Part shown: positions 11,881 through 64,000 of the stretch, one piece after another
Layout of the letters: the number at the start of each line of letters is the position of its first letter
Position numbering within the stretch: the first letter of the stretch is position 1
Assembly (NCBI GenBank): GCA_019096195.1
Contig: JAGTXK010000196.1
Coordinates: 186,001-250,000 of the forward strand
Length of the DNA stretch: 64,000 nucleotides
Direction of reading: 5' to 3'
Source: Boletus sp. NGJ
Taxonomy: Eukaryota > Basidiomycota > Agaricomycetes > Boletales > Boletaceae
Made by a program: the position numbers and the translations under genes
Notes under the pieces: model-generated
The model's input: the letters and a program-made list of their open reading frames with translations, nothing else
What the model was told of the DNA's origin: nothing
Database searches by the model: none

Positions 11881-12149
11881 AAGCTCTACTTGGTTTTAGG
11901 ACATCAAATTCCACGTACTACTTAGTGTGAGCATGCAAGACCATGCATGGGTGATTGCCCCTTGTGATCAGCAACTCGCTCTGATGCGGCCACTGGTTCC
12001 AGGGCCACCTTCCACACCGAGATTCGATCCTCTCTGGCGACAACACCGACAAAAAGGTCCTAGGGAACATTGACCATTTATTCAACCGTCTCTGATCATC
12101 GCAAACAACCTTTCGGGATCAACACGTTCAGATGACTTGAGCTCCTCGC

Positions 12150-15030
12150 TTCATCTCCAAGTTGGAGCGTATGCAACACACGGAGACACTTGCCAATACA
12201 CGTCATGCTGCATACTATAGCAGCGAGCGCGAGGTATTCCGGAAGTGACGCGGTTTAAGTTCGGGTGGTTCATGCATTCATCCCCCATCCTGGACATTTA
12301 TCTTGAGCATGAACGAAAGCCTGTTCAAGAGCATCCTGGAATCACAGGTGGTTGTGTGCGGCACGTCACGAGTGACTGGGTCTGATACAGATTGTACGCT
12401 CGTCGTGAACGGAGTCTTGCAGCCGAGATAGATATGACGAGCACTCGCATGTCCGTTTTGCTAATGGAGACGGTTCACCTGGTCATCGCAAGACTCGCAA
12501 CAAGGTCCGAGGATTCAGGAAGAATAAGCGCCAAAGACACGAGACGCCTGCAACCCATATTGAGAATCAGGAAACGTGTTGAATCTTTGATACAGCAACT
12601 TTGCGCACCACGAGCAAATCGAGACGCCTTGTTCTCTCACTTTTTGAACCTCACGACTGTGTACCATCGGTGAGGATGTCGTCGACAAACACCAGTGCGT
12701 AGCAGGTTCGAGGACTGATTGCATTGTTTGTTGACAATTCAGTCAGACCCAACCATTGAGCTTGAAACGGGTCGCTCTAGTAATATATGGGCAGTCACGT
12801 TCCACCCTGACGGAAAGCATCTTTTCGGCGGGAATAGCTATGGGATCCAGCGATGGCGACTTGAAGGCGGTCAAGAGACGGGGGAGCAAACCGGAAATGA
12901 ACTTCAATGCCATTTCCGTGTCGCGGGATCACAAGTGGGTGGTGTGTGGGACTGAGGCGGGTGCAAGCGTCTGGGACGCGGAGATCCAGGAGAAGGTCAC
13001 TGAAGTGGAGGGTGGAAACTGGGTGTATGCAGTTGATGTCTCCCCAGACTCCACCAGGTTTGCCACTGGAACTCACAAAGAAGTGAACATCTGGAACATT
13101 ACAAGCAGGGAGAGACTCGTTGGCCCACTACGACATGACAATTGGATCAGGGGGATGAAGTTCTCCCCGAGTCACGGCGAGCAGATCGCCACTTCCTGCA
13201 GCAGAGGTTCTATCCGTATCTTTGACAGCCACAACGGTGACGAGCTCATCACCATCACGACTATCACAGCTTCAGTGTACCCAAGCACTCCCCTGGCGTG
13301 GTCAAACGATGGGAAACAAATCTTCACCGTGTCTGAGAACGAAGAATCAACTCATTCGATGTCTCCACAGGGTTGCAGCTCGCTGAATCACCTGTCGATG
13401 TCGAATCTATTGCTCTAGCTGCCAACGGAACATTCATTGCTACCTACAGATCACGTTCAATCATCGTTCATAGATTCAACAACACTCTCTCGCATTGACC
13501 CCATCATCGAGGACGAGCAGAAGACATACGCTCGATTGCCCTTTCCCCAGATAGTCGCTCTCTCGCATCTGGACGACGGGAAGAGAAATCATTGTGCGTA
13601 ACCTTGGCGGTATTCTCCCGGATGTACTATGGTCCTTTCCATGTAAGCATTTGTTCATTGGCATCTCGGATCAGCCACATTCCGTCTCCACTTTGACACA
13701 TTGCGTCAGGCATCTACGGGGCAACCTTCGACCTCGGGTGGACAAGACAACAAGCCACTCGACTCTACCACGGTAGAATTTTCCCGTTCCATGCCAAAAC
13801 GAGTTGCGCTGACTTCCTCATCATGCACGCAAATCAGGAGGAACCTGGAAAACCCAGTTCAGTCTCTGAGACCCGCAGCAACGACGGTGATGGTGGTCTC
13901 CTCGAGGTACCACTTGTTCATTTTTCCCTCGAAGCGAATCCTCACAATGGCATAGGTCGTGGAGCCATCGAATGTGCCCGCTCCTCAGTTCGACTATGAC
14001 GATGTTGATGTTGGTGATCATTACATTTTTTTCTTTTCCCTGTGTTGACCCTGTTGGAGTCACTCTCACTAGCATCCTCTATCAATTCTCGTGAGGACGA
14101 GGTACCGCCACTTGGCCCATCCCACACTGTACCACAATCATCAGATACCCCACCGGTGACCTCCCCCACAGAGGTACATCCAGAGGGACACCATAACACT
14201 GTCAAGTCATCTCAAGGCCTCCGAATGTTTAAAAGATGGTTCCAGACAAACATCAGGAGGAGTAAGAAGGACCCGGGTTTGCATACGCCCCATGGACGTT
14301 CTGGAAAATCGCGTCGGCCTGCTGCTGCTGATCGTCGATCTTCTTCCCAGTCAGCAGAAAGGGTGGATGTGGATGTCACCAATGAGGGGATTTCGCACAT
14401 GGCTGCAACTCGACGTGTACCAGTGAGTCCTTTATAAACGATCCGATGCAGTGTGTCTAACATATCATCTTAGCGAGCGGTTGCGAAGCCCGTTGTAAAA
14501 CGACAAGTTGGTTGTTTCTCGAGACTATGTGCAGGAACTCATCAAACATTCCAGCCTAAATCGGCTGCCAAGGCTGCTGGTCCCAAACATCGGAATAAAA
14601 ATACATCTAATAGTGGAAAACTTCCCGCAGGTGCGACGGAAGCAGGCGCAGTGCGTCGTTTGCTGGTTATTAGGAACCACACTCATACATACCATATTTT
14701 CTATTAGGCCCTACAGGTAAACGATCTACCCCCACCCACTACCGGGACGGTGCGTGTAACGGTGCGTGTCGTTCCTTCCAGTTACTTATTGGACTGATAC
14801 TGGATGACATCAGCGAGAGTCAGACAAGGCTATCCTTTCGATCGCGTTACCCGGGTGGATGTGTTTTGGTTCAAGTAGTACCGGAGATGGAACGCATTGA
14901 TCCAGGTGATTCGATGCAACACGTGTATGTACCGTTTCGAATCCTTCCATCCATGATCGAGCTCGCTGGGATATTCACTTCACGCTCATGAGAAAGTCTA
15001 AATGTACGCGAACTTCGCTAAGGTTTGGGG
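12150..15030 (+). repeat. tandem duplication, unit 2
   Basis: Second direct copy of the 8920-11880 unit, separated from it by about 270 bp. It starts with the block around 12160-12330 (upstream region) and ends with 'atgatcgagctcgctggga' at about 14952 and the adjoining 'gagaaagtctaaatgtacg'. The gene inside is decayed. Confidence 0.8.
12676..14950 (+). pseudogene. WD40-repeat gene, copy 2, decayed
   Basis: Begins MSSTNTSA at 12676 with an intron ending at about 12743, then parallels copy 1: VTFHPDGKHLFGGNSYGIQR, MNFNAISVSRDHKWVVCG, VSPDSTRFATGTHKEVNIW, GSIRIFDSHNGDELITI and STPLAWSNDGKQIF. Compared with copy 1 the frame is lost at 12895-12897 (one extra A in a run before the MNFNAIS block) and again at about 13340-13350, where one base appears missing. 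Blade six and seven sequence survives only in scattered frames up to about 13615. The 3' exons (TGQPSTSGGQDNKPLDSTT, then SREDEVPPLGPSHTVPQSS, then FKRWFQTNIRRSKKDPG) are still recognisable. Two or more independent breaks against an intact paralogue point to a pseudogene, though base-calling error cannot be excluded for the homopolymer one. Confidence 0.72.
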
Positions 15031-15272
15031 CTCAACCCTCTGCGGTGTGCATCATATCATTGCCACGACATGGAAATTGAACGTGCGCATCGACTAAATG
15101 GCATCCTCCTGTCCTCCTGCGCATGGACGACCTCATTGAAACTGCCAGGCATGTCTTACTCATATGTATGTAAATAAATGCCGTTGTCGGCATCATTGCC
15201 ACATCTCCTTCAAGCTTGCATTCCGAACTCTGATTTTATCTATTACCTCGAGCATTTGTTCTTTTTACAGCC

Positions 15273-15477
15273 ATGGCGTCTCCCCTCACCCCCCAGAGAA
15301 AGTCAACCTTCCGTTCGCGTGTCGGAGGGGCACTAAGGCGGTCGTCCGTTGCGTTCAGCCTCCCAGGTTTGCCAAACAGTGGGGGTTTGGCCACACCTCC
15401 GCCACCTCAGGATGGTGATACTACATCCATTGCTGGGTCAGTTTCTGGTAAACTCGAACGGAAAGGTTCTAGCACAT
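15273..15477 (+). CDS. orphan first exon of an unidentified gene, cut by the inverted WD40 fragment
   Basis: ATG at 15273 opens MASPLTPQRKSTFRSRVGGA, then LRRSSVAFSLPGLPNSGG and TPPPPQDGDTTSIAGSVSGK, ending in LERKGS. This is a basic, Ser/Pro-rich N-terminus, the kind seen on long disordered basidiomycete proteins. At about 15478 homology switches abruptly to the inverted WD40 3' copy (its 'gtattgcatc' block), so the rest of the gene is missing here. No domain is present to tell its function. It may be a truncated host gene or a captured fragment. The upstream 240 bases hold no obvious gene and could be its old promoter. Confidence 0.5.
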
Positions 15478-16600
15478 GTATTGCATCATATCACCTGAAT
15501 CAATGTGTTCCATCTTCTCTACCTGACCGAAGACAACACATCTAGGTAGGAAACGTGATCGAAAAGGTAGCCTTGCCTGACTCTCGGTTGTGCTGATCTA
15601 ATATGAGTGTAACAATAGAAGTCTGACGAAAGCGAAAGTACGCGCACCGTGAGATGGACTCCCTCGGCGGGAGGACGAGATGCATCGTCCATTTGTTGCC
15701 CCTGATAGAAAATGAGCTGTGATGATATAATCCATAATAAGCATAATCCGACGCAGTGCGGGACGTTTTCCGCTATGAGAAGCATTTTTATTCCGATGTC
15801 TGAGACCAGTAGCTTTGGCAGTCGATTTAGGCTGTACTGTCTGATGAGTCCCTGTATATAAGCTCGAGGAACAATTAACCTGTCGTTTTACAACGGGCTT
15901 CGCAACCGCTCGGTAAGATGATGTATCAGAGAAACTGTATTGGATCATCAATCAAGGAGCACTCACTGGCTCACGCCGATTCGCAGCCATCTGCGAAGGT
16001 CCCTCATTCGTGGCATCCACTCCCGGTGACCGTGAACGAGATTGACGATCGGCAAGCTGACGGGACTTTCTGGAAAGTCGATCAGGCTCGTTTAAAGCCA
16101 GGTCCTTATTACCCTTCTCGACCTACGTCTGCAGCCACTTTCTAAACGTCGTAAGGCTCTGAGAGGACTTGACAGTGTCGTGATGTCCCTCTAGACGTGC
16201 CTCTGGAAGGGATGTGACCGGTAGGGAATCTGATGATTGTGCTGCGGCATGGGATGGGCCAAGTGACGGTACCTCGTCCTCACGAGAATTGACAGAGGAT
16301 GCTGGTGACGGTGTCTCCAACAGGGTCAACACGGAGAGAGAGAAAAATGTAATGATCACCAACCTCATCATAGTCGAACTGAGGAGTGGGCACACTCGAT
16401 GGTGCCTTGACCTATGCCATTGTGAAAACTCGCTTCGAGGGAGAAATGAACCAAGTGATACCTCGAGGAGATCACCATCGCCGTCGTTGCTGTGGGTCTC
16501 GGGGACCGAACTGGATTTCTCAGATTCTTCCGGTGTTGTGTCAGCTTTGTTGAGAGATGTAGATACGGTGCACCATCATGACTATGTGGACTCATATCAA
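15478..16600 (-). pseudogene. inverted part-copy of the WD40 gene (3' half only)
   Basis: On the minus strand this segment repeats the 3' exons of the WD40 gene in order. It begins with KNLRNPVRSPRPTATTAM at about 16560, followed by PASSVNSREDEVPSLGPSH, TTFRKWLQT, YRAVAKPVVKRQVNCSSSLY, KATGLRHRNKNASHSGKRP and GYLFDHVSYLDV at about 15545. It stops at the block corresponding to about 11720 of copy 1. None of the seven propeller blades is present. It lies head-to-tail inverted against copies 1 and 2, about 450 bp beyond the end of unit 2. With no start and no propeller it should be non-functional. Confidence 0.75.
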
Positions 16601-22587: not shown

Positions 22588-25500
22588 ATGAACAACCACG
22601 ACCCACCCAATCCAGAGCTAGAGCTGTCAGTGCGAACATCGACCCTCTCTTCCGTTGATATCAAGCAACATGACTCGGATGTTGCCCCCTCCTCCCCGAC
22701 TGCTTCTGTCCACGACTTTCCGCCTCCCCCGCCACCCGCACCAACGTTTGAGCTGCTCTTCTCGTTCCTCACCCCGAGACGAAAACTTGTGCTGCTCATA
22801 CCCGCCATCGCATCGTCCGTCGCAGCGGGTGGCATCGCTCCTTTCATGACATACGTCATCGGCCAGTCTTTCAACACATTTGCCGCCTTCCCCCTCACTC
22901 CGAATCCATCCCAAGCAGCAAAGGATGCCCTCCTCCGTGGCGTCGGGTTCGTTGCATTGGAGCTTGTCGCGCTCGGTGTTGGCGCCCTCGTCATGAGCAG
23001 CGTCACAAGTAGCCTATGGATATGGACCGGCGAATGGAATGTCATCGAGTTGAGAAGAAAAGTTTATGACGCAGTCGTGCACAAGCAAATGGAATGGTTC
23101 GATAGACAGATGGGAAGCGATAATCCCACCAACGTGCAAAACATGGGTGGCGAAAGTGCTCCCGTCGGCGCTGGCGGCCTCATGGCCAGGTTTGCTAGGT
23201 AAGCTCCTTTGTGTCTCGATGTTGCCCACTGTACTCAGTCACTTGACAGGGAAACCGACGATGTACGCGCCGCGTCATCCCTCGCAGCTGGCCAACTTAT
23301 TCAATATTTAACTACAACATTAACGGCTCTTGTACTCGCATTCATCTGGTCTCCTCTCTTGACCCTTGTCATCCTCTCCGCTGTACCCTTTCTTATCCTC
23401 ATTCAGGGTTTCTCTCAAGCTTCTGCATCACCTCGTATCGCACAAGAAAGAACGCTCGTCGCTCGTGCAGCTTCCCTTGTCTCCCGAGTCGTATCAAATA
23501 TTGGCGCGGTCAAAGCAGCGAATGCAGCTTCCTACGAACACACTCTTCTTACACGTGTGGCGGTCGCTGTTCAATCACTCGGCGTCATCTGGGGTGTCAC
23601 AGCTGGTACAAGTCAGTTTGTCACAATGGCCATGTTTGTCCAGGGGTTCTGGTATGGAGCGCACCTGGTGCTCCAGGACAAGATTCAACCCGGTTACGTC
23701 ATGAGTGTCTTCTGGGCGTGTTTGATCGCGACCAGTAACCTGCAGATGATGGTTCCACTTTTGGTCGTTTTGGCCAAGGGCAAGGCAGCAGCTGCGGAAC
23801 TTGCAGCAGTAATTTCGAACTCTGAACAAGTCCCGGCCGCACTCGTTGTCGCTAAACACCGCAAGGCGCAACGTCTTCGCCGGATTACGCCCCGTAGCTT
23901 CGCCGGTGATTTCATGCTTACCAACCTCACCTTTTCCTACCCTACTCGCCCAACCGTGCCTGTTCTACGCGATGTGGACATGTTCCTTCCTTCCCGTGAA
24001 ACGACATTTATCGTCGGTCCTTCTGGATGTGGTAAATCCACAATCGGATCCATTCTGCTCGGCCACTATACCCCAGCCCTCGACGGGGGTGAGGTGCTCC
24101 TCGATGAACAAGAATTGCGATATCTCGATTCAACTTGGGTCCGAAGACACGTCGCCGGCGTCACACAAGGTTCTGCTGGCGTTGGTGCACAAGTTTTTAG
24201 GGGTTCTATCCACTGGAACATTGCCCTCGGAGCTGTCGGAAGTGGAAGACCCGTCCAAGAAGTGACCCGTGCGGAGGTCGAAGAAGCGTGTCAACTTGCG
24301 ATGTTGGAGGCGTGGGTCTTGGGGCTTGAGGCAGGATACGAGACCATCCTAGCTGGGAGCGGGGAGAATAGCGATGCCGAAGGTGGTGTCGTGTTGAGCG
24401 GGGGTATGAGGCAACGATTGGCACTCGCGAGAGCGAGGATCCGGGATCCTGAAGTCCTGATTCTTGGTGGGTTTCCGTGTACCTCACGATGGGTGACCAC
24501 TTGCTCACGATATATGCGTATAGACGAGTCGACGTCGGCGTTGGACCCTCTCACCCGCCATCTGACGACCGCAGCCATCCGAGCGTGGCGTTCACGCGTG
24601 AAGAAGACAACGATTATTATTACACACGACCTCATGAGTATCAACCCGGGCGACTTTGTGTACGTTATGCGAGAGGGCTGCGTTGCCGAGCAAGGGTTCC
24701 GCGCGGATTTGGAGAAGATCGATGGGGAGTGGCACAACATGTTGCGTCAAGGTGGCTCTTCCGACAGCGATAACGAGTCAGTTGCACACCCGCCCGTATA
24801 TGAAGATGTCGCAGAGATCCTCGCTTCCCAAGAGGAAGAAGCGCGGGACACTCAACAGGCAAAGGACAAGCACTATAGCCTCGCCCCCACTCTCAGTGGT
24901 GTACGCCCTGTCACAACGGCAATCGGAGGTTGGATGTTCGATGTCGTCGCTGAGCTAACGAAGACGGCAAATGGCAACGTCCAGAATGAGGTTCCCCCAC
25001 TCCCTACTACTCTTCCTGTTGTCCTGAATCACGTGGCCGAGTTCGAAGGTGGTGCTTCTGGGAGACCCAGGAGACCTTCGAGCATGTCGATCGTAGTCTC
25101 CTCGCTCACCGTCCCATCACGTGTCTACAGTGGTCACCGGACAAGTTTGCAGTTCACACCTATCTCGCCTTCATCCACTTCCCCCTTCGATTCGGTTGCT
25201 CCACCTCAACCGATGGTGGAAGACGATGAAGAGTTTGAAAGCCAGAAAATCAGCTTAAAACGGAGCGCGGAACAGGCTGCTGGAAAACGTGAGAAGCGTA
25301 CGAGGAGGGCACCCGACGCCGTGCAAGTCGCCGAGATTTCTCAGGCATCCCAGTTTGACTCGACAACCTCGGCCTCCGAACCCCTTCCCGCACGCGGTCT
25401 AATCTCAACGCTGCGTCTCATATACCCAACGATACCCAACAAACATCTTCTCGTTATAGGTCTTGTCGCATGCCTACTGAGCGGTGCTATGACGCCCATC

Positions 25501-27218
25501 TTCTCCTTTCTGCTCTCCCGCCTGATGTTTCGAAGTCTCCGCGAGCCCCGGTGCCGCCAGTATCAACTTTTATGGTGTTCTTGTCCTCGGAATTGCGGTA
25601 GTGGACGGTCTAGTCATGGGTTTCAAATATTTCCTCATGGAAACATCGGCCATTCGCTGGGTCACCCGTTTGCGTAACACTGCCTACTCCCGCGTGCTCG
25701 CGCAGGATAAAGTATGGTTCGACTCTCCTGCACATTCCCCTGCCGCGGTTGCACAAGTTCTTATCAAAGATGCCGATGACGCGCGGACGCTTATGTCAGT
25801 CGTTATGGGCCAGTTCTTGGTCGTTGTAGCAATGATGGGTGTAGGAGTGGTTTGGGCTATGGTGTGGGGATGGCAGTTGACCCTCGTCGGGATCGCTATC
25901 GGTCCAGTTTTCGTTGGCGTCATGGCCGTCCAAGCGGGGTGGGTTGCGAAATGTGAGGTTAGGAACAAACGCGCTCGCGAGGAGGTTGCGAGGGTCTACT
26001 ATGAGGTATGTTCATGATGTAGTTCTCAATGTCGATGTCGATTGTTCCTGCAACTCACTCATTTTTTTTTCATTACGATAGACAATCCTCAATGTTCGTA
26101 GCATCCGTGCCATGTCCCTGGAGCCAGTTCTGCAATCCCAATTCGACAAAGCTACCTCCGTCTGTCTTTCCACTGGTATCCGTGGCGCGTTCGTCGAAGG
26201 ATGTACGTATGGCGTCGCTTCCGCTCTTATCTACCTCGCAGAAGCGCTCCTGTTCTACGTCGGCGCGGTTCTCGTCGCCAATGGCACCTACACCTATCTC
26301 CGGATGGTCCAAGTGCTCAATCTCGTCGTTTTCACGGTCACGATTGGCAGCCAGCTCATGGCGTTCACTCAAAAGATTGCCAAGAGTGTTCAAGCGACTA
26401 CGGATCTCTTCCAGTTCGTGAACCTGTCCACTGACGGGACGAGCGAATCCCAAGGTATACTCCGCCCACAGATTACCGGCGACCTCGTACTACAGAACGT
26501 GTCCTTCGCGTACCCAACAAATCCCGATACGGCTGTGTTGAAGAACCTCTCGATGAAGGTCACAGAGGGCGAGTGCGTCGCGCTTGTCGGTGCCTCTGGA
26601 TGCGGCAAATCGACGGTGTCGGCTCTGCTGCAAAGGCTGTATGAGCCTACCTCGGGAACGATCACTGTCGGTGCACACGAACTTCGATGGACGGACGTCC
26701 ACCATCTACGCAACCACGTCGCCGTCGTGAACCAAACTCCCAACCTCTTCGACGGTACGATTCGGGAGAACATCGCCTACGGCCACATCGGAGAACTCAC
26801 AGACGACGACGTCATGCGCGCTGCACGGGCTGCGAACGTACATGAATTCGTGGTGTCGCTCCCGCAGGGGTACGATACCCTCGTGGGCGAAAACGCCGCG
26901 CTCATTTCGGGCGGGCAAGCGCAGCGTCTCCAAATCGCTCGTGCCCTCGCACGTCCCTCAAAGATCCTCATTCTCGACGAATGCACCTCAGCGCTCGACG
27001 GTACGAATCAGGCGGCGGTGATCGAGACTCTTCGGGGTGCCAAGGTTGGACGGACGACGGTGATGGTGACGCACAAAGTAGAGGTGATGCGGATGTGTGA
27101 CCGGGTAGTGGTCATCGAGGATGGGAGGGTGGTGGAGGAGGGGCGGTATGAGGAACTCGTGGAGCGCAAGGGGCCGTTTGCCAAGCTCGCGAGTGGGGGT
27201 GAATGGCTTGGTGAATGA
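22588..27218 (+). CDS. full-size ABCB transporter, Ste6-like
   Basis: A TMD-NBD-TMD-NBD exporter of about 1,450 residues. In fungi this group exports the farnesylated mating pheromone; the a-factor exporter call rests on overall resemblance, other ABCB substrates remain possible. Start MNNHDPPNPELELSVRT. TMD1 begins at TPRRKLVLLIPAIASSV. NBD1 has Walker A GPSGCGKST, Q-loop VTQ, signature LSGGM, Walker B VLILDES split by an intron (about 24464-24522), and switch ITHD. A linker of about 220 residues rich in Ser/Pro and basic residues precedes TMD2 (HLLVIGLVACLLSGAMTPIF). NBD2 has GASGCGKST, ISGGQ, ILILDEC and VTHK. Introns lie near 23201-23250, 24464-24522 and 26006-26082. In TMD2 a TTT at 25528-25530 carries one extra base: dropping it gives FEVSASPGAASINFYGVLVL and restores the frame to the 25601 block. 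Confidence 0.85.
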
Positions 27219-53175: not shown

Positions 53176-53389
53176 TTCGTTTCTACTTCATGGTACTTTT
53201 TCAACCGCCACACTTTTTATTTTTGCGAATATACTGTTTGTATTGCAACGGACAATGTCATTTCTATTGCTATCACAATCCGCGCTTGTACAAGCTCCTC
53301 TTGATAATCAGCCCACATCTGTAATAATATGGGAAATTTTCAAACTTTTCAAACGATCACTTACTTTTCATTTTCTTCACCTCTTTTCT
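53176..53389. other. short gap before the gypsy element
   Basis: AT-rich, no recognised frame. The left limit of the gypsy element is not exactly known and may lie within or just after this stretch. Confidence 0.35.
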
Positions 53390-54417
53390 TCATAAGTCAC
53401 GTGACTGTGCACGTGACCGTGGAAACATATCACATGATAGGTCTAGAACCTATGACATCATATGACATCATACCTCATGTGATCCACGTCTCTTTAATTT
53501 CCGCTCTTCTCACACAGCCCATTAATCTCCGTCTTACCATACGTAGTAATTTATCACATGCACAGCCTGGTCCGTGCGCACTTCTCATCATGTATATAAA
53601 CTAGCACTTAGACGACTGGTATCCCCAGTCTAATCCACTTGTATCTTCCTCCAATAACCTATTAGCTTCGGCCATCGGTCGTCGTAGGGTTAGGAATATC
53701 CAGGACTAAGACTCTCCCACCTGATTCGTTCAGCCAGGACTCGTGTAGCCTGCAAAGTAGTTTCCGAGCCTTGTGGTTTGTTTTCCGAAAGGGATTCATA
53801 ACACTTGGATTAGACTGCTATACACAACGCTCGGACTCCAGAGCTAAGGAGATATACGCGGGCCCAGCGTTTTAAGGGACATCTGCATAGTATTCACCAC
53901 TTGACGGTGACGAGAAAAGAACTCGCCGAAACTCTTGCATATACGCTCGTCCGGCGTACTAAATAAGGATAACGTTGCTGCCGGGCATAGTGCACTAGCC
54001 CCACTTCTCAGGTGGTTGCCGACTTGAGCGTACGCTGGTTCTACGATAGTGAACCCAGGTTCTCGTGATTACCTGTGACGTCACGAAGTAGCGTTAAGGA
54101 GATTTATCTCGCCTTTCTCCCGTGCTACACCTGCTTGTAGTAAAAGCAGTCATCCTCCGGTCCCCCATCACCGTTGCCCATCATTTTCAACGACCTCTAC
54201 TTCGACTCCTACGAAGGCGTAGGAACCCCAGAACCGGATTGTAAGATATCTGGTAGTAAGGTTCTGAAAGAAGACCGACGCAGGAAAAGGAAAACTTATA
54301 TCAGAAACCCCGACAAAGTCAGACCTCTTCGCCCATCCTCCGCATTCGCACTCTACCGCATTCAATACTTCCGCTCCTACCTTCGCCCCACATCACTCTT
54401 AAGACCAAACCCTCAAT

Positions 54418-55582
54418 ATGTCTAGAGTCGACATTGACGAACTCGTCCAAAAACTCGCCGACCTTACTCAGGAACGCGACAAGGAAAATATCACAAAGAA
54501 AATCGCTGATCCTGGGAAATGGGACGGCACAAGGTCATCTTTCCGCCCCTGGTGGATAAAGCTCCGTCTCTGGGTTGACGCCCAGAAATGGAAAAATAAC
54601 AAGATCATGGACATCGCTGTCCTCTCCCGTCTCGAAGGAAAAGCGGAATCCTTCGCACAATTGATTATGGAACATTACCTCGATGAGGAAGCTACCATCG
54701 AGACGGACGCAAACGGGACTCTTGTTACCGGCAAAAGGAGCCAATGCTTGGCCCACTTGGAATAGGTTACAGGAGCAGATCAAAACCCACTTCTGTATCG
54801 ATACCTTGGCCCACGAGTCATTAAGGAAACTCGAGGCCTTGAAACAAAACGGTCACCCTATTGACCTATTCCTACAACAGATTTGAGATCTTGAGAAAAG
54901 AGTCGTATATCGACGATCACCACGCCGAAGTTCTACTGAAAAAGGCAGTAGACTTCAAAATCTACGAACGATCTCGTTTGAACAGCCCTGCCCGCAACTT
55001 TGACTACGAAGACCTAGTCATAAACTATAGAACAATAGGTCGGGCATTCGAACAGATTGCGAACGAGCGTGGCCCCCCTCATCAGATCTCAACCCCCACG
55101 TTCCTCATTTCCTCCTCCCCGTGGGCAACCCCCACACAATTCATATCGCCCAACCTACACGGCAGTAGGAACACAACCGGGTCGCGGTGCGCCCATGGAA
55201 ATAGGTGTCCAGCAGGCTGGACCTTCCAAGGAAACCAGAACCTGTTTCCACTGTGGCAAACCCGGCCACATTAAACCTAACTGCCCGACGAACCCTTTCA
55301 AACGGACTGGTCGTCCACCTATGCAACGCCAGATTTGGGACTGGAACCAAGGCTCGTACAGAGCAAAATCAGGGAGAAAACGAGTATCCCTCTTTTTTTA
55401 ACGAAACCCAATCTCGCGCATACGCACAACGACCACTCCCGCAACCTCCCGTCAGCTACAACGGCACCAAGTGTAGCAGCAAGACCTATGTTTCCGATGA
55501 GGCGGAAGCATACTATAGAGACAAATTCGAGGTGGAAGCAAAAGCCCGAGCTGCACAGGCTTTAAATGGACAGCGCCAATGA
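54418..55582 (+). pseudogene. gag region of gypsy element 1
   Basis: Begins MSRVDIDELVQKLADLTQER. The capsid-like part has WDGTRSSFRPWWIKLRLWVD, and the nucleocapsid has one CCHC zinc knuckle CFHCGKPGHIKPNCP. Fossil coding region, broken. Confidence 0.8.
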
Positions 55583-58500
55583 GTACAGAGGGAACTCAGC
55601 GGCAAGAACTTTCTTCTTCTTTTTCATCTTCTCTTACGACATGTACAAGTACCGATTTTCCTATCTCCGATCTCTCCGCTGTACTACGTAAACTATCAAT
55701 GAAATCTGCGAGGGCGTCTCAATTGAGCGCGGCACCAGAATTAAGTGTACTTAATTCCCTCGTAAAACAACAAAAAATATCGAATATCTATAAACCCACA
55801 AAGGTCACGTTAAACCAAGCATCTACACTTTCCTATGGTGGAGAATTTTCACTCGAAACCATAGTATCGTGCAACGTTAACGGCCAGTGGTCGCGTTACC
55901 GTTTCCAGTCCCTCCTGGATTCGGGAGCGTCGCATACTTTCATAGATCAGGACTATGTAAAACGTCACGGAATACCTTTTTATACCATCGACAACCCCAT
56001 TAAGATACATAATGCTGACGGTTCGGAAGGAGCAATCGGACCGATCCGTCACGCGGTAACACTGATGGTGGAAATAGAAGGACACTACGAAGTCATAGAC
56101 GCGTACATATCTAAATTAGGAACTCATCGAATGATCATCGGGTATGACTGGCTATATCGTCATAACCCTGACATCGATTGGGTAAAACAGACAATCACTT
56201 TTCCCTCGTTGTACCTCCTACTGTAAAATTATGGGCCTAGGACCCACTTCCTCTTACGAGCCGGCTCAACTACGTACAATAGAAGAAGGACTTAAAGAAA
56301 AGGTTCCATTAACTTATCACGAATTTCTAGATGTCTTTTCGGAGAAAGAATCTCAAAGGATGCCTTTACGAAAACACTGGGATCATGCAATCGATCTCAA
56401 AGAAGACTTCATCCCCAAGAAAGGACGTGTTATTCCCCTTTCGGACATCGAGATGGAAGAAGTCAGAACGTTCATCGAAAAGGAAGTCAAGAAGGGTTAT
56501 GTCAAACCCTCCAAATCTCCACAGACATCTCCCGTCTTCTTCATTCCCTAAAAAAGACGGCAAAAAACGAATGGTTATGGACTACCGCTATTTAAACGAA
56601 GGAACGATCAAGAATTCCTATCCACTCCCTCTTATCCCGCAGTTAATTGATCGACTCAAAAACGCGGATCTATTTACGGCTATGGATCTCCGATGGGGAT
56701 ATAACAATGTCCGCATCAAAGAAGGCGATGAATGGAAAGCGGCATTCGTTACCCCTATTGGAGCATACGAACCTACCGTTATGTATTTCGGTCTTACGAA
56801 CTCTCCCCCCACGTTTCAAACGATGATGAACGATATATTTAACGACATGTATGCGGTAGTCGTCATCTACATCGACGACGTTATGATATTCACATCAAAA
56901 AAGACAAAAGAGCAACACGAAGAAGTTGTAAAGGAAGTTTTACGCCGTCTCCGCGAAAACGACCTTTACGTAAAACCAGAAAAGTGTACCTTCTCGGCAG
57001 AAAAAGTAGATTTCTTAGGGATGGTGGTATCTAAAGAGGGGGTAGAAATGCAGTCGAAGAAAGTAGCTGGGGTCATGGATTGGCCAATTCCTACTCGCTT
57101 GAAGCAACTTCAAGGCTTTCTCGGACTCTGTAATTATTATAGACGATTCATAGAAGGCTTCGCACAAATCGCCCGACCCTTGAACGATCTTACCAAGAAA
57201 GACGTTCCATTCAAATGGGGTCCAGATCAACAAGAAGCATTCACAAACTTAAAAAGAAAATTTACGGAAGCGCCACTTCTCGCGTATCCTAATCGCGATC
57301 AAGAAATGCGCGTGGAAACCGATGCCTCAGACATCGCCACGGGAGCAGTGCTCTCCACCTTATGCAATGACGAGTAACTGGCGACCAGTCGCCTTTATCT
57401 CTCACTCTTTTGACAGCGCAGAGCGCAACTATCCGATTTACGATAAAGAATTACTTGCAGTAATTCGCGCCCTTAGAAGAATGGCGCCATTATTTAATTG
57501 GTCGCGAAAGGTTTGAAATCTGGACTGACCATAAAAATCTAGAATATTGGAAGAAGCCTCAAACGCTTAGCGGACGTCAAGCACGTTGGCATGCGCTTCT
57601 TCAAGAATTTAATTATTCTTTCGTATACAAACCTGGATCGTCCAATGGGAGAGCTGATGCTCTATCTCGACGACCAGATCACGGTGACGCAGTTGTAGAT
57701 CACAATCAAAACGTCACCGTTCTCCCTCCTTCTATATTTATAAATCACGTTTCTCTTTCTTCCGATCTCATGACAAAAATACAAAAAGAATCTAAAAAAC
57801 ATAACGTCGATGCTATAAACAATTTCCTTTTCTACTCAGAACTTAATCTATTCAAAAACGAAAAAGATCAAATCTACGTACCTGAATCTCTACGTACCGA
57901 AATCATTACGTTATGTCATGATTCGCCTATTGCAGGACACGGCGGTCATTCTAAAACTATACATACTCTTTCTCGATATTTCTCGTGGCCAGGAGTCACA
58001 AAGGACGTAAAAACTTACGTAGATCACTGCCAAGTGTGCGCCCTCACGAAGGGTAAGCAAAATGCACCGGCAGGAAAAGTCATCCCTCTTCCCGCAGCAA
58101 AAAGACCATGGGAAGATCTTATCAGTAGATTTCATTACAGGCTTACCGCCATCACAATCCTTTACCGCTATCTGTGTTGTTGTGGACAGATTCTCAAAAG
58201 AAGTTATTTTTATACCAACTTACGATACTGTTCCTTCGAAAGATCTTGCTATTTTATTTAGAGACCATGTCTGGTCAACACATGGACTCCCCTCTACCCT
58301 CGTATCAGATCGAGGACCACAATTCGTTTCCGCCTTCACCCAAGAGCTTTGTAAGCTCCTTGGCATAAAACAAAAAATCTCTACGGCATACCATCCGCAA
58401 ACGGACGGGCAAACCGAGCGCGTTAATCGAGGATCTCGAACAGTATCTCCGCGCACGTATGCCGGAAAGAAACAAAACGACTGGGTCGAATGGCTGAAGT

Positions 58501-58830
58501 TAGCCCAATTCTCTCACAACAACACCGTCACTACGGCTAGCCACTGGAGAAATCCCCTTCAAAGTCACACGAAACTACGTACCACGTATGGGTTTCGAAG
58601 GGAATCTCTTACGGGTTTTGCAGACGAAATTGGGCGTAACCATAAGGAGATTGAAGAAGCGCTGGAAGCTACACGAGAGAGGATGATCACCTCTTCCGAT
58701 AAAAAACGATCCTATCGGCACCAGAATATTCTATTGGCCAGCAAGTCTGGCTTTCAACAGATAAATTAAAACTTCCTTACACGGCGAAGAAACTCACACA
58801 AAAATGGATTGGTCCCTACGTTATCACTAG
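55579..58830 (+). pseudogene. pol region of gypsy element 1
   Basis: Protease with DSGASHTFID, reverse transcriptase with the catalytic YIDDVMIF, RNase H starting at TDASDIATGAVL, integrase zinc finger (H-H-C-C pattern around GHGGHSKTIHTLSRYF and CQVCALTKGK), integrase core around VVDRFSKEVIFIPTYD and YHPQTDGQTERVN, and the C-terminal KWIGPYVITRVL. The order protease, RT, RNase H, integrase is that of Ty3/gypsy. Fossil, broken, cut on its right by element 2. Confidence 0.85.
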
Positions 58831-58843
58831 GGTACTTCCTAAC

Positions 58844-59436
58844 TGTTACGTTTCCTACTTTTCCTCCTTTTTCTTCCCTTCAATCGTCCTCGTCCTTGCC
58901 TCGTCCTCTTGAATTCCCCTAGGACCATTTACTACACAGTGAGACTCCGTGTAGTCAAGGCCGACCTTCGCACCTTGTGCATCATTTGTACTTCTACGCT
59001 GACTCCACACGGGGGATTCCTTCTATTTCTCACTCCATAGGATCTTCCTGGTGCTGCGGCTTATTCATCCTTTTCCCACGCCTCAGTATGTATATAAACC
59101 CAGCCTCTGTAGTTGATCCCACAATTTACACCTACTTGGTGAACTTTCATCATCGCCTCTCCAGACCTCTAAAAGTCGTTGTTCCACTTCGAGTGAATGC
59201 TTCTTCTACGTCTCGTCTTCACTCTTTGAGTGAACCCTTGACTACGACTAGGAAGACCCTTTGTCGTCGAACCCTCGACCCCGCGACTAGGAAGACCCCC
59301 TGTCGTTGAACCCTTGACCCTACCAAGGGCCACCTTTGTCCCGTAGCTCTCTGAAGCTACCTCTCTCGACTCCGGTAGCTCATCGCTACTCAACCATCCA
59401 AGTTAACGCCTGTCCCTACCCGGGGTAGTCGTAACA
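58844..59436 (+). repeat. LTR of gypsy element 2
   Basis: 593 bp beginning TGTTACG and ending CGTAACA, a perfect 7-base terminal inversion as expected of an LTR. It contains a TATATAAAC box at about 59090 and repeated CTAGGAAGACCC / GTCGAACCC motifs near 59250-59310. The mirrored copy begins at 63576 and would end at 64168. Confidence 0.85.
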
Positions 59437-59766
59437 AAAGGTGTAAATTCTTATATTGAGGTTATTGTTGTCATAACCCTCCACCCACCATTGCTCACCA
59501 ATGTCCCACTCTGAACCCTGCGTGGTGGAACCCTCGTGCACGTGCCGAGACACCCTCCACCGATGACAATTCTTCTGACCAAGAAGGATCACCAGACACC
59601 AACCTCGACCTTGACCTCCCGTCCCAACAACAACAGGACGCGGCCCTTGATTTGTCACACCAACTCTCAGATCGTCTACGTCTATCAAGAACTCCCACAC
59701 CACCGTCTCCGACACCGTTGACGGCAGTACCCTTGTTCTCAGCACCACCCCCCTCCCCTGTCACCT

Positions 59767-60670
59767 ATGTCTTCAGCAACTCGACCAATTGAACTCCGCA
59801 TCAGTACCCCCGAAGCCTATGATGGCTCCTTTGACACCTCGGTATCATGGTTGAACACAGTCCAGTTCTACCTCTACGTCAACGCCAAGGTCTATGACAC
59901 CGACGCTAAGCAAATAGCCTTCGCCCTATTCTATATGACTAAAGGGCCAGCCCTCACCTGGGCTACCACTTATCAACAAAACGCCATCAATGGCATCACC
60001 ATCATCCTCGGGTCATTCGCCGACTTCGTCACCGCCTTTGAAAAGGCATTCAAACACCGAGACACCACTGGGAATGCCATTGCTTGGCTGTCCACCAAAC
60101 GAATGACCAAGAAGCGAGACAACTCGTATTCCCCTCCCCTCATGCAATACACATCCGAGTTCCAGAACAATGCCGCCCTTGCCAAGATCACCGACCCGAA
60201 CGTCCTCATTGGGTACTATTCCGCTGGAATCCCACCGGGGCTTATGCGACGGATCATGTCCATGGACACTGTACCCACCACCATCGAAGAATGGTACTCC
60301 CGTGCCATCCATTTCCAAACTCAATGGGAAAGAGCCGATGAAATCGCAAAAAGAAGTAGTAAACCATCCACGCACACCTACCACTCCTTCTCTTCGCCCA
60401 CCTTCTCCAAACCCTGAGACCCCAATGCCATGGACGTCGACGCCGTCTCCATCCCCAAACTGACCCCCAAAGAGTGAAAATGCTGCTTTGACCAAAAACT
60501 TTGCTTCTGTTGTCGCCAACCGGGTCACATCACCACGGCATGCACCACCTTCGCCTCCCCCATCAGGAAGGTGAAGAACCCCCCTGCCAAGAAAGTCAGG
60601 GTTGTCGAACAAGAAGAGGGAGACTCTGACAGAGAAACCGTCGGACAGGTCTCCTCGGGTTTTTAAAGAG
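59767..60670 (+). pseudogene. gag region of gypsy element 2, left arm
   Basis: Begins MSSATRPIELRISTPEAYDG. A capsid-like Ty3 gag pattern follows (FALFYMTKGPALTWATTYQQ, FEKAFKHRDTTGNAIAWL), then a CCHC-type zinc knuckle CFCCRQPGHITTACTTF near 60495-60545. Fossil; mirrored at 62342-63245. Confidence 0.75.
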
Positions 60671-60680
60671 GGGAACACCT

Positions 60681-61280
60681 TTGACGCATGTTTCCCCTTC
60701 TCTTAGTTGTGCCGCTATAACAGTAGAATCGAAATTGAAAGGCATTCGCATCCCTGTTCAACTTCTCATTCCTGCACATGCTAAGAAAGCTGTCAACACC
60801 AGAGCCCTCGTAGATAGCGGCACAGAGATCTCCTGCGTCGACTATCAGTTCGTGCGAAAGCATAAACTCCCCACCACACGACTTCACACCCCCATCCGCG
60901 TCCAAAACGCTGACACCTCGTTCAACAAGAACAGAGATATCAAGTTCACCTGTGACCTCTTCGTGGACATTAAAGGCATCCTCATAAGGACAACCCTCCA
61001 CGTTATCTCCTGTGGACAAGAAAACATCATCCTTGGCCAACCCTGGCTCCGCTCGTGCAACCCAACCATCGACTGGGCAGCTAATACCCTCACCCTCGAT
61101 GAAACCCTCGACCAATCCGCCGACCTCTACCACACAAGGACCAAACCCCTCCCCGCCGAAGAAGATGAATCCTCATCCAGGTCCGGTCATGTTGACATCA
61201 ACCTCCGAACCTGCCACCACCTCCGCGGCTTCCTCCAGAAGGAAACCGAAGAGCGAGAGTACCTACGGAATGCGAACTGA
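60681..61280 (+). pseudogene. aspartic protease region of gypsy element 2, left arm
   Basis: Retropepsin signature ALVDSGTEISCVDYQFVRKH, second strand DLFVDIKGILIRTTLHVISC, and IILGQPWL. Typical Ty3/gypsy protease. Mirrored at 61732-62331 on the minus strand. Fossil. Confidence 0.8.
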
Positions 61281-61506
61281 AATCGCGTCCTACACCGAAT
61301 CATCTGAGGGCAATACAAATATGTTGCCGCCTCCACCGTCGCCAAGATCACAGTCGCAACCGAACTCGCAGGAGCCGCTGAGAGGGCCAAGCCCAAACCA
61401 ACCCTCCCGGCAGCGTATGCTGATTACGCCTCTGTCTTCTCAAAAGAAGCCACCGACCATGTTCCCCCATCACGCCCCTATGACCACGAAATCAACGTCA
61501 AAGAGT

Positions 61507-64000
61507 CTCTTTGTCGTTGATTTCGTGGTCATAGGGGCGTGATGGGGGAACATGGTCGGTGGCTTCTTTTGAGAAGACAGAGGCGTAATCAGCATACGCT
61601 GCCGGGAGGGTTGGTTTGGGCTTGGCCCTCTCAGCGGCTCCTGCGAGTTCGGTTGCGACTGTGATCTTGGCGACGGTGGAGGCGGCAACATATTTGTATT
61701 GCCCTCAGATGATTCGGTGTAGGACGCGATTTCAGTTCGCATTCCGTAGGTACTCTCGCTCTTCGGTTTCCTTCTGGAGGAAGCCGCGGAGGTGGTGGCA
61801 GGTTCGGAGGTTGATGTCAACATGACCGGACCTGGATGAGGATTCATCTTCTTCGGCGGGGAGGGGTTTGGTCCTTGTGTGGTAGAGGTCGGCGGATTGG
61901 TCGAGGGTTTCATCGAGGGTGAGGGTATTAGCTGCCCAGTCGATGGTTGGGTTGCACGAGCGGAGCCAGGGTTGGCCAAGGATGATGTTTTCTTGTCCAC
62001 AGGAGATAACGTGGAGGGTTGTCCTTATGAGGATGCCTTTAATGTCCACGAAGAGGTCACAGGTGAACTTGATATCTCTGTTCTTGTTGAACGAGGTGTC
62101 AGCGTTTTGGACGCGGATGGGGGTGTGAAGTCGTGTGGTGGGGAGTTTATGCTTTCGCACGAACTGATAGTCGACGCAGGAGATCTCTGTGCCGCTATCT
62201 ACGAGGGCTCTGGTGTTGACAGCTTTCTTAGCATGTGCAGGAATGAGAAGTTGAACAGGGATGCGAATGCCTTTCAATTTCGATTCTACTGTTATAGCGG
62301 CACAACTAAGAGAAGGGGAAACATGCGTCAAAGGTGTTCCCCTCTTTAAAAACCCGAGGAGACCTGTCCGACGGTTTCTCTGTCAGAGTCTCCCTCTTCT
62401 TGTTCGACAACCCTGACTTTCTTGGCAGGGGGGTTCTTCACCTTCCTGATGGGGGAGGCGAAGGTGGTGCATGCCGTGGTGATGTGACCCGGTTGGCGAC
62501 AACAGAAGCAAAGTTTTTGGTCAAAGCAGCATTTTCACTCTTTGGGGGTCAGTTTGGGGATGGAGACGGCGTCGACGTCCATGGCATTGGGGTCTCAGGG
62601 TTTGGAGAAGGTGGGCGAAGAGAAGGAGTGGTAGGTGTGCGTGGATGGTTTACTACTTCTTTTTGCGATTTCATCGGCTCTTTCCCATTGAGTTTGGAAA
62701 TGGATGGCACGGGAGTACCATTCTTCGATGGTGGTGGGTACAGTGTCCATGGACATGATCCGTCGCATAAGCCCCGGTGGGATTCCAGCGGAATAGTACC
62801 CAATGAGGACGTTCGGGTCGGTGATCTTGGCAAGGGCGGCATTGTTCTGGAACTCGGATGTGTATTGCATGAGGGGAGGGGAATACGAGTTGTCTCGCTT
62901 CTTGGTCATTCGTTTGGTGGACAGCCAAGCAATGGCATTCCCAGTGGTGTCTCGGTGTTTGAATGCCTTTTCAAAGGCGGTGACGAAGTCGGCGAATGAC
63001 CCGAGGATGATGGTGATGCCATTGATGGCGTTTTGTTGATAAGTGGTAGCCCAGGTGAGGGCTGGCCCTTTAGTCATATAGAATAGGGCGAAGGCTATTT
63101 GCTTAGCGTCGGTGTCATAGACCTTGGCGTTGACGTAGAGGTAGAACTGGACTGTGTTCAACCATGATACCGAGGTGTCAAAGGAGCCATCATAGGCTTC
63201 GGGGGTACTGATGCGGAGTTCAATTGGTCGAGTTGCTGAAGACATAGGTGACAGGGGAGGGGGGTGGTGCTGAGAACAAGGGTACTGCCGTCAACGGTGT
63301 CGGAGACGGTGGTGTGGGAGTTCTTGATAGACGTAGACGATCTGAGAGTTGGTGTGACAAATCAAGGGCCGCGTCCTGTTGTTGTTGGGACGGGAGGTCA
63401 AGGTCGAGGTTGGTGTCTGGTGATCCTTCTTGGTCAGAAGAATTGTCATCGGTGGAGGGTGTCTCGGCACGTGCACGAGGGTTCCACCACGCAGGGTTCA
63501 GAGTGGGACATTGGTGAGCAATGGTGGGTGGAGGGTTATGACAACAATAACCTCAATATAAGAATTTACACCTTTTGTTACGACTACCCCGGGTAGGGAC
63601 AGGCGTTAACTTGGATGGTTGAGTAGCGATGAGCTACCGGAGTCGAGAGAGGTAGCTTCAGAGAGCTACGGGACAAAGGTGGCCCTTGGTAGGGTCAAGG
63701 GTTCAACGACAGGGGGTCTTCCTAGTCGCGGGGTCGAGGGTTCGACGACAAAGGGTCTTCCTAGTCGTAGTCAAGGGTTCACTCAAAGAGTGAAGACGAG
63801 ACGTAGAAGAAGCATTCACTCGAAGTGGAACAACGACTTTTAGAGGTCTGGAGAGGCGATGATGAAAGTTCACCAAGTAGGTGTAAATTGTGGGATCAAC
63901 TACAGAGGCTGGGTTTATATACATACTGAGGCGTGGGAAAAGGATGAATAAGCCGCAGCACCAGGAAGATCCTATGGAGTGAGAAATAGAAGGAATCCCC
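61507..64000 (-). mobile_element. mirror arm of gypsy element 2
   Basis: Reverse complement of 59012-61505: protease at 61732-62331, gag at 62342-63245 and the LTR from 63576 to beyond the window, all on the minus strand. The centre carries the inverted block atgaccacgaaatcaacg / cgttgatttcgtggtcat with almost no spacer. Confidence 0.9.

What the first reader, a model, noticed from the sequence alone, without database searches (positions are those of the whole stretch)
58844..64000. Near-perfect spacerless palindrome of a gypsy element
Every landmark in the left arm (LTR, gag, protease) recurs at 123012-p on the other strand, with no indel over about 2.49 kb and a centre with nearly no spacer. 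Head-to-head half-elements lacking RT and integrase are unusual. Explanations: LTR element auto-integration, inverted duplication after a break, or a long-read fold-back or assembly artefact.
Basis: partly seen in the sequence, partly recalled or inferred. Interest (0 to 1): 0.75.

Follow-up and report, generated by a model that had tools for sequence, protein, structure and literature searches.

The report
Fold-back assembly artefact in retrotransposons
The mirror-image stretch is present in the assembled sequence, but it is most likely a sequencing or assembly fold-back at the end of a contig, inside one retrotransposon nested in another, rather than a new kind of genetic element.

Summary
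The palindrome is in the sequence: 2,493 of 2,495 symmetric positions pair about T61506. The mirror does not stop at 64168; it runs to the last base of the contig, window 68056.

The core is the 5' part (LTR, gag-like, protease) of gypsy family F1, nested in the integrase region of a different gypsy family, F2. The right flank is the left flank mirrored, with no target-site duplication, so auto-integration is refuted. Within 64 bp of the LTR the right arm becomes another, older F2 copy (4.8% diverged).

A second contig, C35, ends the same way: arms of at least 6,811 bp, no mismatch in 5,091 off-centre pairs tested, stopping at the contig's last base, an apparent LTR end. An unfolded relative of its centre lies near the end of contig C2 (99%).

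Both fold points lie at short inverted repeats seen in unfolded relatives. Best reading: fold-back molecules or reads kept by the assembler at repeat-bound contig ends (0.8). Main rival: a real fold-back inverted duplication rescued by recombination between F2 copies (0.15). No reads were available to decide.

The parts
53320..58843 (+). F2 gypsy element, copy A (LTR about 53320-53803, then gag, protease, RT, RNase H, integrase), interrupted at 58843; frames broken
   Evidence: Pfam RVP_2, RVT_1, RNase H, Integrase_H2C2, rve in order on frames that stand open. LTR limits inferred: match to C7 starts at 53318; LTR end from identity with the last bases of C35.
58781..58843 (+). 63 bp of F2 next to the F1 LTR, identical in both arms; the right arm changes from copy A to copy B here or at the LTR boundary
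   Evidence: first arm difference outward from the LTR is 64 bases away, at 58780/64232
58844..59436 (+). F1 gypsy 5' LTR (593 bp, TG...CA), start of the nested insertion
   Evidence: homology to other F1 LTRs; left flank CTAAC; uninterrupted site in 13 of 13 other F2 copies aligned
59437..61505 (+). F1 internal region up to the fold: gag-like frame and aspartic protease
   Evidence: gag matches below Pfam cut-offs; RVP_2 above
61506..61506 (.). fold point (single T) of the palindrome
   Evidence: whole junction found only on C17
61507..63575 (-). mirror of the F1 internal region
   Evidence: 2,724 of 2,725 pairs match over 58781-61505; exception 61498/61514
63576..64000 (-). mirror of the F1 LTR; continues to window position 64168 outside the window, then F2 (copy B beyond about 64232) to the contig end at 68056

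Best explanation
A fold-back artefact at a contig end. In the genome an F1 Ty3/gypsy element is nested in an F2 Ty3/gypsy element (copy A). A strand that snapped back on a short inverted repeat inside F1, most likely during amplification or library preparation, gave a molecule or read that runs out to 61505 and back along its complement. Shown: the mirror, its extent, the nested anatomy, the change to copy B within 64 bp of the LTR, and a second contig-terminal palindrome on C35. Inferred: the in-vitro origin, the events at read level, and that copy B really lies elsewhere.
For: Mirror runs to the last base of the contig. Both arms carry the same 45 private substitutions and are identical but for one base beside the centre. 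Outer arms are different F2 copies, and the change falls within 64 bp of the LTR boundary out of 3,888 bp of F2 on that arm, 1.6% if uniform. A second contig, C35, ends in a fold-back with a 2-nt centre, 5,091 of 5,091 off-centre pairs tested matching, up to its last base, at an apparent LTR end. A 99% relative of the C35 centre runs on unfolded near the end of contig C2. Spacerless palindromes raise rearrangement more than 10,000-fold in yeast (PMC8053094, passages), so a perfect centre is unlikely to last. Fold-back reads are documented at 0.55-0.6% of ONT genomic reads and said to tangle assembly graphs (PMC12870357, passages).
Against: The fold points lie at inverted repeats of the unfolded sequence, which an in-vivo fold-back predicts too. 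Two faults are needed on C17 (fold, then change of copy), and an assembler should have recruited copy A reads, not B, on the mirrored arm. The unfolded continuation expected for an artefact (F1 3' LTR, CTAAC, rest of F2) was not found, and the seven F2 remainders at 96% or more all belong to other, continuous copies. If copy B reached right up to the LTR, 63 matching bases would be expected only 4.8% of the time at the mean divergence. C2 may be another copy or allele, not the same place. Sequencing platform unknown; PacBio HiFi showed virtually no fold-backs in PMC12870357. End slices of 13 other contig ends showed no spacerless palindrome, though most slices were too short to see one like that of C35.
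Confidence: 0.8

Rival explanations
1. A real fold-back inverted duplication. A double-strand break in F1 was resected, the 3' end annealed to itself at the short inverted repeat CAAAG-AGAC-CTTTG and primed synthesis, giving a hairpin-capped and then dicentric chromosome. This was stabilised by recombination between F2 copies, which joined copy B and its chromosome arm.
For: Short inverted repeat at the fold point in 5 of 11 unfolded F1 copies. In yeast, fold-back priming uses such repeats (a 5-bp one in two of three wild-type cases) and the duplication is stabilised by recombination at delta elements or PAU genes; a direct template switch at a repeat was not ruled out (PMC10622511, passages and section 11). 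The F1 3' half and A-type F2 remainder are missing from the assembly, as a terminal loss would predict.
Against: The change to copy B lies within 64 bp of the LTR out of 3,888 bp. No donor for copy B above 94% elsewhere, though break-induced copying leaves one. A second, C35, fold-back also stops at its contig's last base. In sae2-deficient yeast, mismatches in an imperfect repeat were corrected (PMC10622511); here the 61498/61514 mismatch remains. Spacerless palindromes are very unstable in yeast (PMC8053094).
Confidence: 0.15
2. Auto-integration of an F1 LTR element into its own copy before insertion, giving an inverted half-element.
Against: The right flank is the mirror of the F2 flank and not its continuation, which is GCCGTAACG in 13 of 13 other F2 copies aligned. 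No target-site duplication. The F2 flank lies outside the element and could not be mirrored by auto-integration.
Confidence: 0.01
3. Two F2 copies, A and B, lie tail to tail and each received F1 at the same site, or B received it from A by gene conversion.
For: A and B are distinct F2 copies on either side.
Against: None of nine other F1 copies lies in F2 at this site: their alignments to C17 stop at 58837 or later. Identical private substitutions in both arms and a 1-nt spacer would need several further events.
Confidence: 0.02

Closest known systems
Fold-back / palindromic long-read artefacts (PMC12870357, PMC13141652, PMC6218980)
   Same: Same locus joined to its own complement with no or almost no spacer; no extra sequence at the turn; known to disturb assembly.
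   Different: Here seen in an assembled contig, with a change to another repeat copy at the F1/F2 boundary; no reads were available, so the artefact itself was not observed.
Fold-back inverted duplications of yeast with repeat-mediated secondary rearrangement (PMC10622511)
   Same: Short inverted repeat at the centre, inverted duplication, end of the duplication in a dispersed retroelement joined to another copy of it.
   Different: Central mismatch kept, no donor copy found, change of copy next to the LTR boundary, arm stops at a contig end.
Nested Ty3/gypsy LTR retrotransposons
   Same: F1 LTR inserted in the integrase region of F2; domain order of F2 is that of Ty3/gypsy.
   Different: Only the first 2.66 kb of F1 is present before the mirror; the 3' LTR and target-site duplication are not in the contig.

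Membership tests
Fold-back read / assembly artefact | Same sequence joined to its own complement with little or no spacer | tested here: met
   C17; C35
Fold-back read / assembly artefact | Supporting reads few and symmetric about the fold, other reads pass it unfolded | not testable with these tools
   no reads held
Fold-back read / assembly artefact | Unfolded version of the locus exists | tested here: inconclusive
   C17: not found. C35: 99% relative near the end of C2, perhaps another copy or allele.
In-vivo fold-back inverted duplication with repeat-mediated rescue | Short inverted repeat of the parental sequence at the centre | tested here: met
   5 of 11 unfolded F1 copies have CAAAG-AGAC-CTTTG; C2 has an imperfect 11-bp repeat, which 13 of 200 shuffles match in energy
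In-vivo fold-back inverted duplication with repeat-mediated rescue | Donor repeat copy present elsewhere if rescue was by break-induced copying | tested here: not met
   no match to copy B above 94% elsewhere; a donor missing from the assembly is possible
LTR auto-integration product | Target-site duplication around the whole structure, host sequence continuing on the far side | tested here: not met
Ty3/gypsy element (F2) | Protease, RT, RNase H, integrase in that order | tested here: met
Ty3/gypsy element (F1) | Two LTRs around gag-pol | tested here: inconclusive
   on C17 one LTR, gag-like frame and protease before the fold; other copies have LTR pairs about 6.7 kb apart; their RT and integrase were not searched for

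The most novel reading that the evidence does not exclude
The C17 and C35 palindromes are real: this genome has undergone repeated in-vivo fold-back inverted duplications primed at short inverted repeats, and the broken chromosomes were rebuilt by recombination between dispersed gypsy copies, a natural counterpart of the rearrangements of Mre11/Sae2-deficient yeast, caught so early that the centres are still perfect.
Probability: 0.15. Interest if true: 0.6.

Novelty: not a real feature. Interest (0 to 1): 0.12.

Why it matters
It is a caution: apparent half-elements and perfect palindromes at contig ends can be fold-backs that an assembler joins to other copies of a repeat, and they would inflate counts of inverted retroelement pairs. 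If it were real instead, it would show in a natural genome the fold-back and repeat-mediated rescue pathway that was worked out in yeast mutants.

Tried and rejected
Auto-integration: rejected on the mirrored flank. Copy B as copy A with sequencing errors: rejected, since B lacks several indels that A shares with its close relatives and has its own substitutions. Insertion hot-spot for F1 in F2: not seen in nine of nine other F1 copies. Junction of F1 3' LTR, CTAAC and the rest of F2: pattern with up to 3 mismatches gave one hit with 3 mismatches, on C50; its locus has no F1 LTR or F2 match over 60 bases. The 20 stretches around other F1 LTRs fetched gave no match to the first 337 bases of the F2 remainder.

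Contig C85 (20,386 bases) ends inside F2 about 130 bases before the F1 site and was considered as the true continuation of copy B. By inspection of the alignment it differs from B at two positions in the part where B can be told from A, so this was not accepted.

The look at other contig ends covered 13 ends besides C35, mostly 3-kb slices, one of 1.5 kb, one of 10 kb. None had a spacerless palindrome; C116 has 186-base inverted arms 1,764 bases apart. A palindrome like that of C35, centred 6.8 kb from the end, would be missed in most of them: the C35 slice itself (L043) showed nothing. C35 was found because its F2 hits come in pairs of equal score, so this is no survey of all 282 ends. Telomere repeats (motif recalled) were not seen in bulk at the start of C17.

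Five paper searches were made; of the papers listed I opened five. I make no claim that a palindromic gypsy of this kind is not in print. The organism was not identified.
Full report
What is there. C17 has 254,056 bases, so the contig ends at window position 68056. Inside the window the finding is right: arms 59012-61505 and 61507-64000 are complementary with 1 nt between them, and 2,493 of 2,495 symmetric positions pair, against 31.8% at the next best offset.

Extent. The mirrored LTR ends at 64168 as predicted, but the mirror does not stop there. The self-comparison runs from 54942 to the last base of the contig. From 58781 to 61505, 2,724 of 2,725 pairs match; the exception is T61498/T61514 beside the centre. 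Outside that, over 54942-58843, 186 of 3,883 aligned positions differ (4.8%); 154 are transitions, 80 of them in CpG context, and there are 16 gaps.

Anatomy. Two gypsy families are involved. F1 has a 593-bp LTR at 58844-59436, then a gag-like frame (below Pfam cut-offs) and a protease, up to 61505. It sits in the integrase region of F2, whose protease, RT, RNase H and integrase lie at about 55.5-58.8 kb. In 13 of 13 other F2 copies aligned the site is uninterrupted and reads CTAAC GCCGTAACG. To the right of the mirrored LTR stands the reverse complement of the left F2 flank, not the rest of F2. That excludes auto-integration.

Two F2 copies. Left copy A is 97.8-98.9% identical over 57700-58843 to copies on C7, C124, C6 and C89 and shares several indels with them; right copy B has none of those. 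At the differences between A and B in two end segments, compared with 14 other copies each, B has 26 and 34 substitutions seen in no other copy aligned, A 3 and 0 (gap columns left out here because part of them are overhang of the alignment). B is therefore another F2 copy, not A with errors. It has no match above 94% elsewhere. The first difference between the arms, going outward from the LTR, is 64 bases away, so the right arm leaves locus A in the 63 bp next to the F1/F2 boundary or at the boundary. If the change could fall anywhere in the 3,888 bp of F2 on that arm, this would happen in about 1.6% of cases. Against an exact coincidence with the boundary, 63 matching bases would be expected with probability 0.048 at the mean divergence; these bases vary little among close copies. 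I read the position as the mark of an assembly graph that branches at a repeat boundary; that is inference.

Age. The F1 copy has 45 private substitutions and one insertion over 59437-61490, against nine other copies in the first half and eight in the second (one copy did not align over the second half). Both arms share them. LTR pairs of eight other F1 copies differ by 9 to 31 substitutions (the ninth pair was dropped because one LTR aligned in two pieces). The fold is far younger than the element, or not biological.

Centre. A 411-base query across the centre matches throughout only on C17; the other copies match one half at a time. Of 11 unfolded F1 copies, 5 have the perfect short inverted repeat CAAAG-AGAC-CTTTG at this point. 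In the one folded (C109) it forms a hairpin, though the low energy is shared with a second hairpin beside it. In window 100-58500, 246 of 58,400 positions have such a stem with a loop of 3-6. C17 differs from the unfolded copies by AC to TCT in the loop, and its odd base T61514 equals the base that unfolded copies carry there. That may be a snap-back 3' end, or unfolded reads leaking into the consensus; I cannot tell which.

A second case. F2 hits on C35 come as inverted pairs with equal bit scores in five searches. A 4,182-base piece matches both arms at 100% with the same score. Around the centre 349 of 350 pairs match, the exception being the central T/T; at the outer end 560 of 560 match, and that end is the last base of the contig, 533860. 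The arm has at least 6,811 bases, of which 5,091 off-centre pairs were tested; 1,719 were not read. The contig ends with the same bases that end the apparent F2 LTR in the window. The sequence at the C35 centre has a 99% match over 350 bases at C2:30127-30476, C2 being 30,514 long. There it runs on unfolded, with an imperfect 11-bp inverted repeat and a 12-base loop, whose energy 13 of 200 shuffles reach. C2 may be the same place, an allele, or another copy of that repeat (two further relatives at 90% and 88%). Two contigs are thus known to end in fold-backs with a 1- or 2-nt centre that run to the last base, both with an LTR boundary where the copy changes or the contig stops.

Verdict. The common cause I favour is fold-back molecules or reads kept at repeat-bound contig ends, probability 0.8. 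Such reads are common in some data: 0.55-0.6% of ONT genomic reads, and said to tangle assembly graphs (PMC12870357, passages); 0.18-7.33% inverted repeats in ligation libraries (PMC13141652, abstract and discussion); 43.6% and 47.8% of reads in two whole-genome-amplified Arabidopsis sets against 0.5% in the control (PMC6218980, passages). PacBio HiFi showed virtually none, and the platform is unknown here.

The rival. Yeast inverted duplications form by fold-back priming at short inverted repeats and are stabilised by recombination at delta elements or PAU genes (PMC10622511, passages and section 11). That resembles C17 closely, and the missing F1 3' half and missing A-type F2 remainder fit a terminal loss. 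Against it stand the change of copy next to the LTR boundary, the absent donor, the kept mismatch, the second contig-terminal case with an unfolded relative, and the instability of spacerless palindromes in yeast (PMC8053094, passages). I give it 0.15. The missing right-hand side of the F1 insertion is the point that the artefact reading explains least well.

Noticed in passing
G000:C35:520239-533860 (L043, L075, L076, L077): Second palindrome with a 2-nt centre, arms of at least 6,811 bp, running to the last base of the contig and holding F2 gypsy sequence.
   Followed up: yes
G000:C85:19900-20386 (L074): Contig C85 ends inside an F2 copy about 130 bases before the site where F1 is inserted in C17, close to where the two arms of the C17 palindrome begin to differ.
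   Followed up: partly
L029, about C7:8549: An F2 copy about 99% identical to copy A breaks off at the equivalent of window 58699 and other sequence follows.
   Followed up: no
window 10493-16502: A stretch of 95-226-nt blocks is repeated directly about 3.2 kb apart (82-90%), and parts of it also occur inverted (77-87%); the WD40 frame 9385-10581 overlaps its start.
   Followed up: no
window 59245-59320: The F1 LTR holds two 37-nt tandem copies, 89% identical, 39 nt apart.
   Followed up: no
L030:5709-7328 (C7): Inverted arms of about 225 nt (97-100%) some 1.2 kb apart, perhaps a DNA transposon with terminal inverted repeats.
   Followed up: no
window 23209-27218: Two neighbouring frames with ABC-transporter membrane and ATPase domains, probably exons of one transporter gene.
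   Followed up: no
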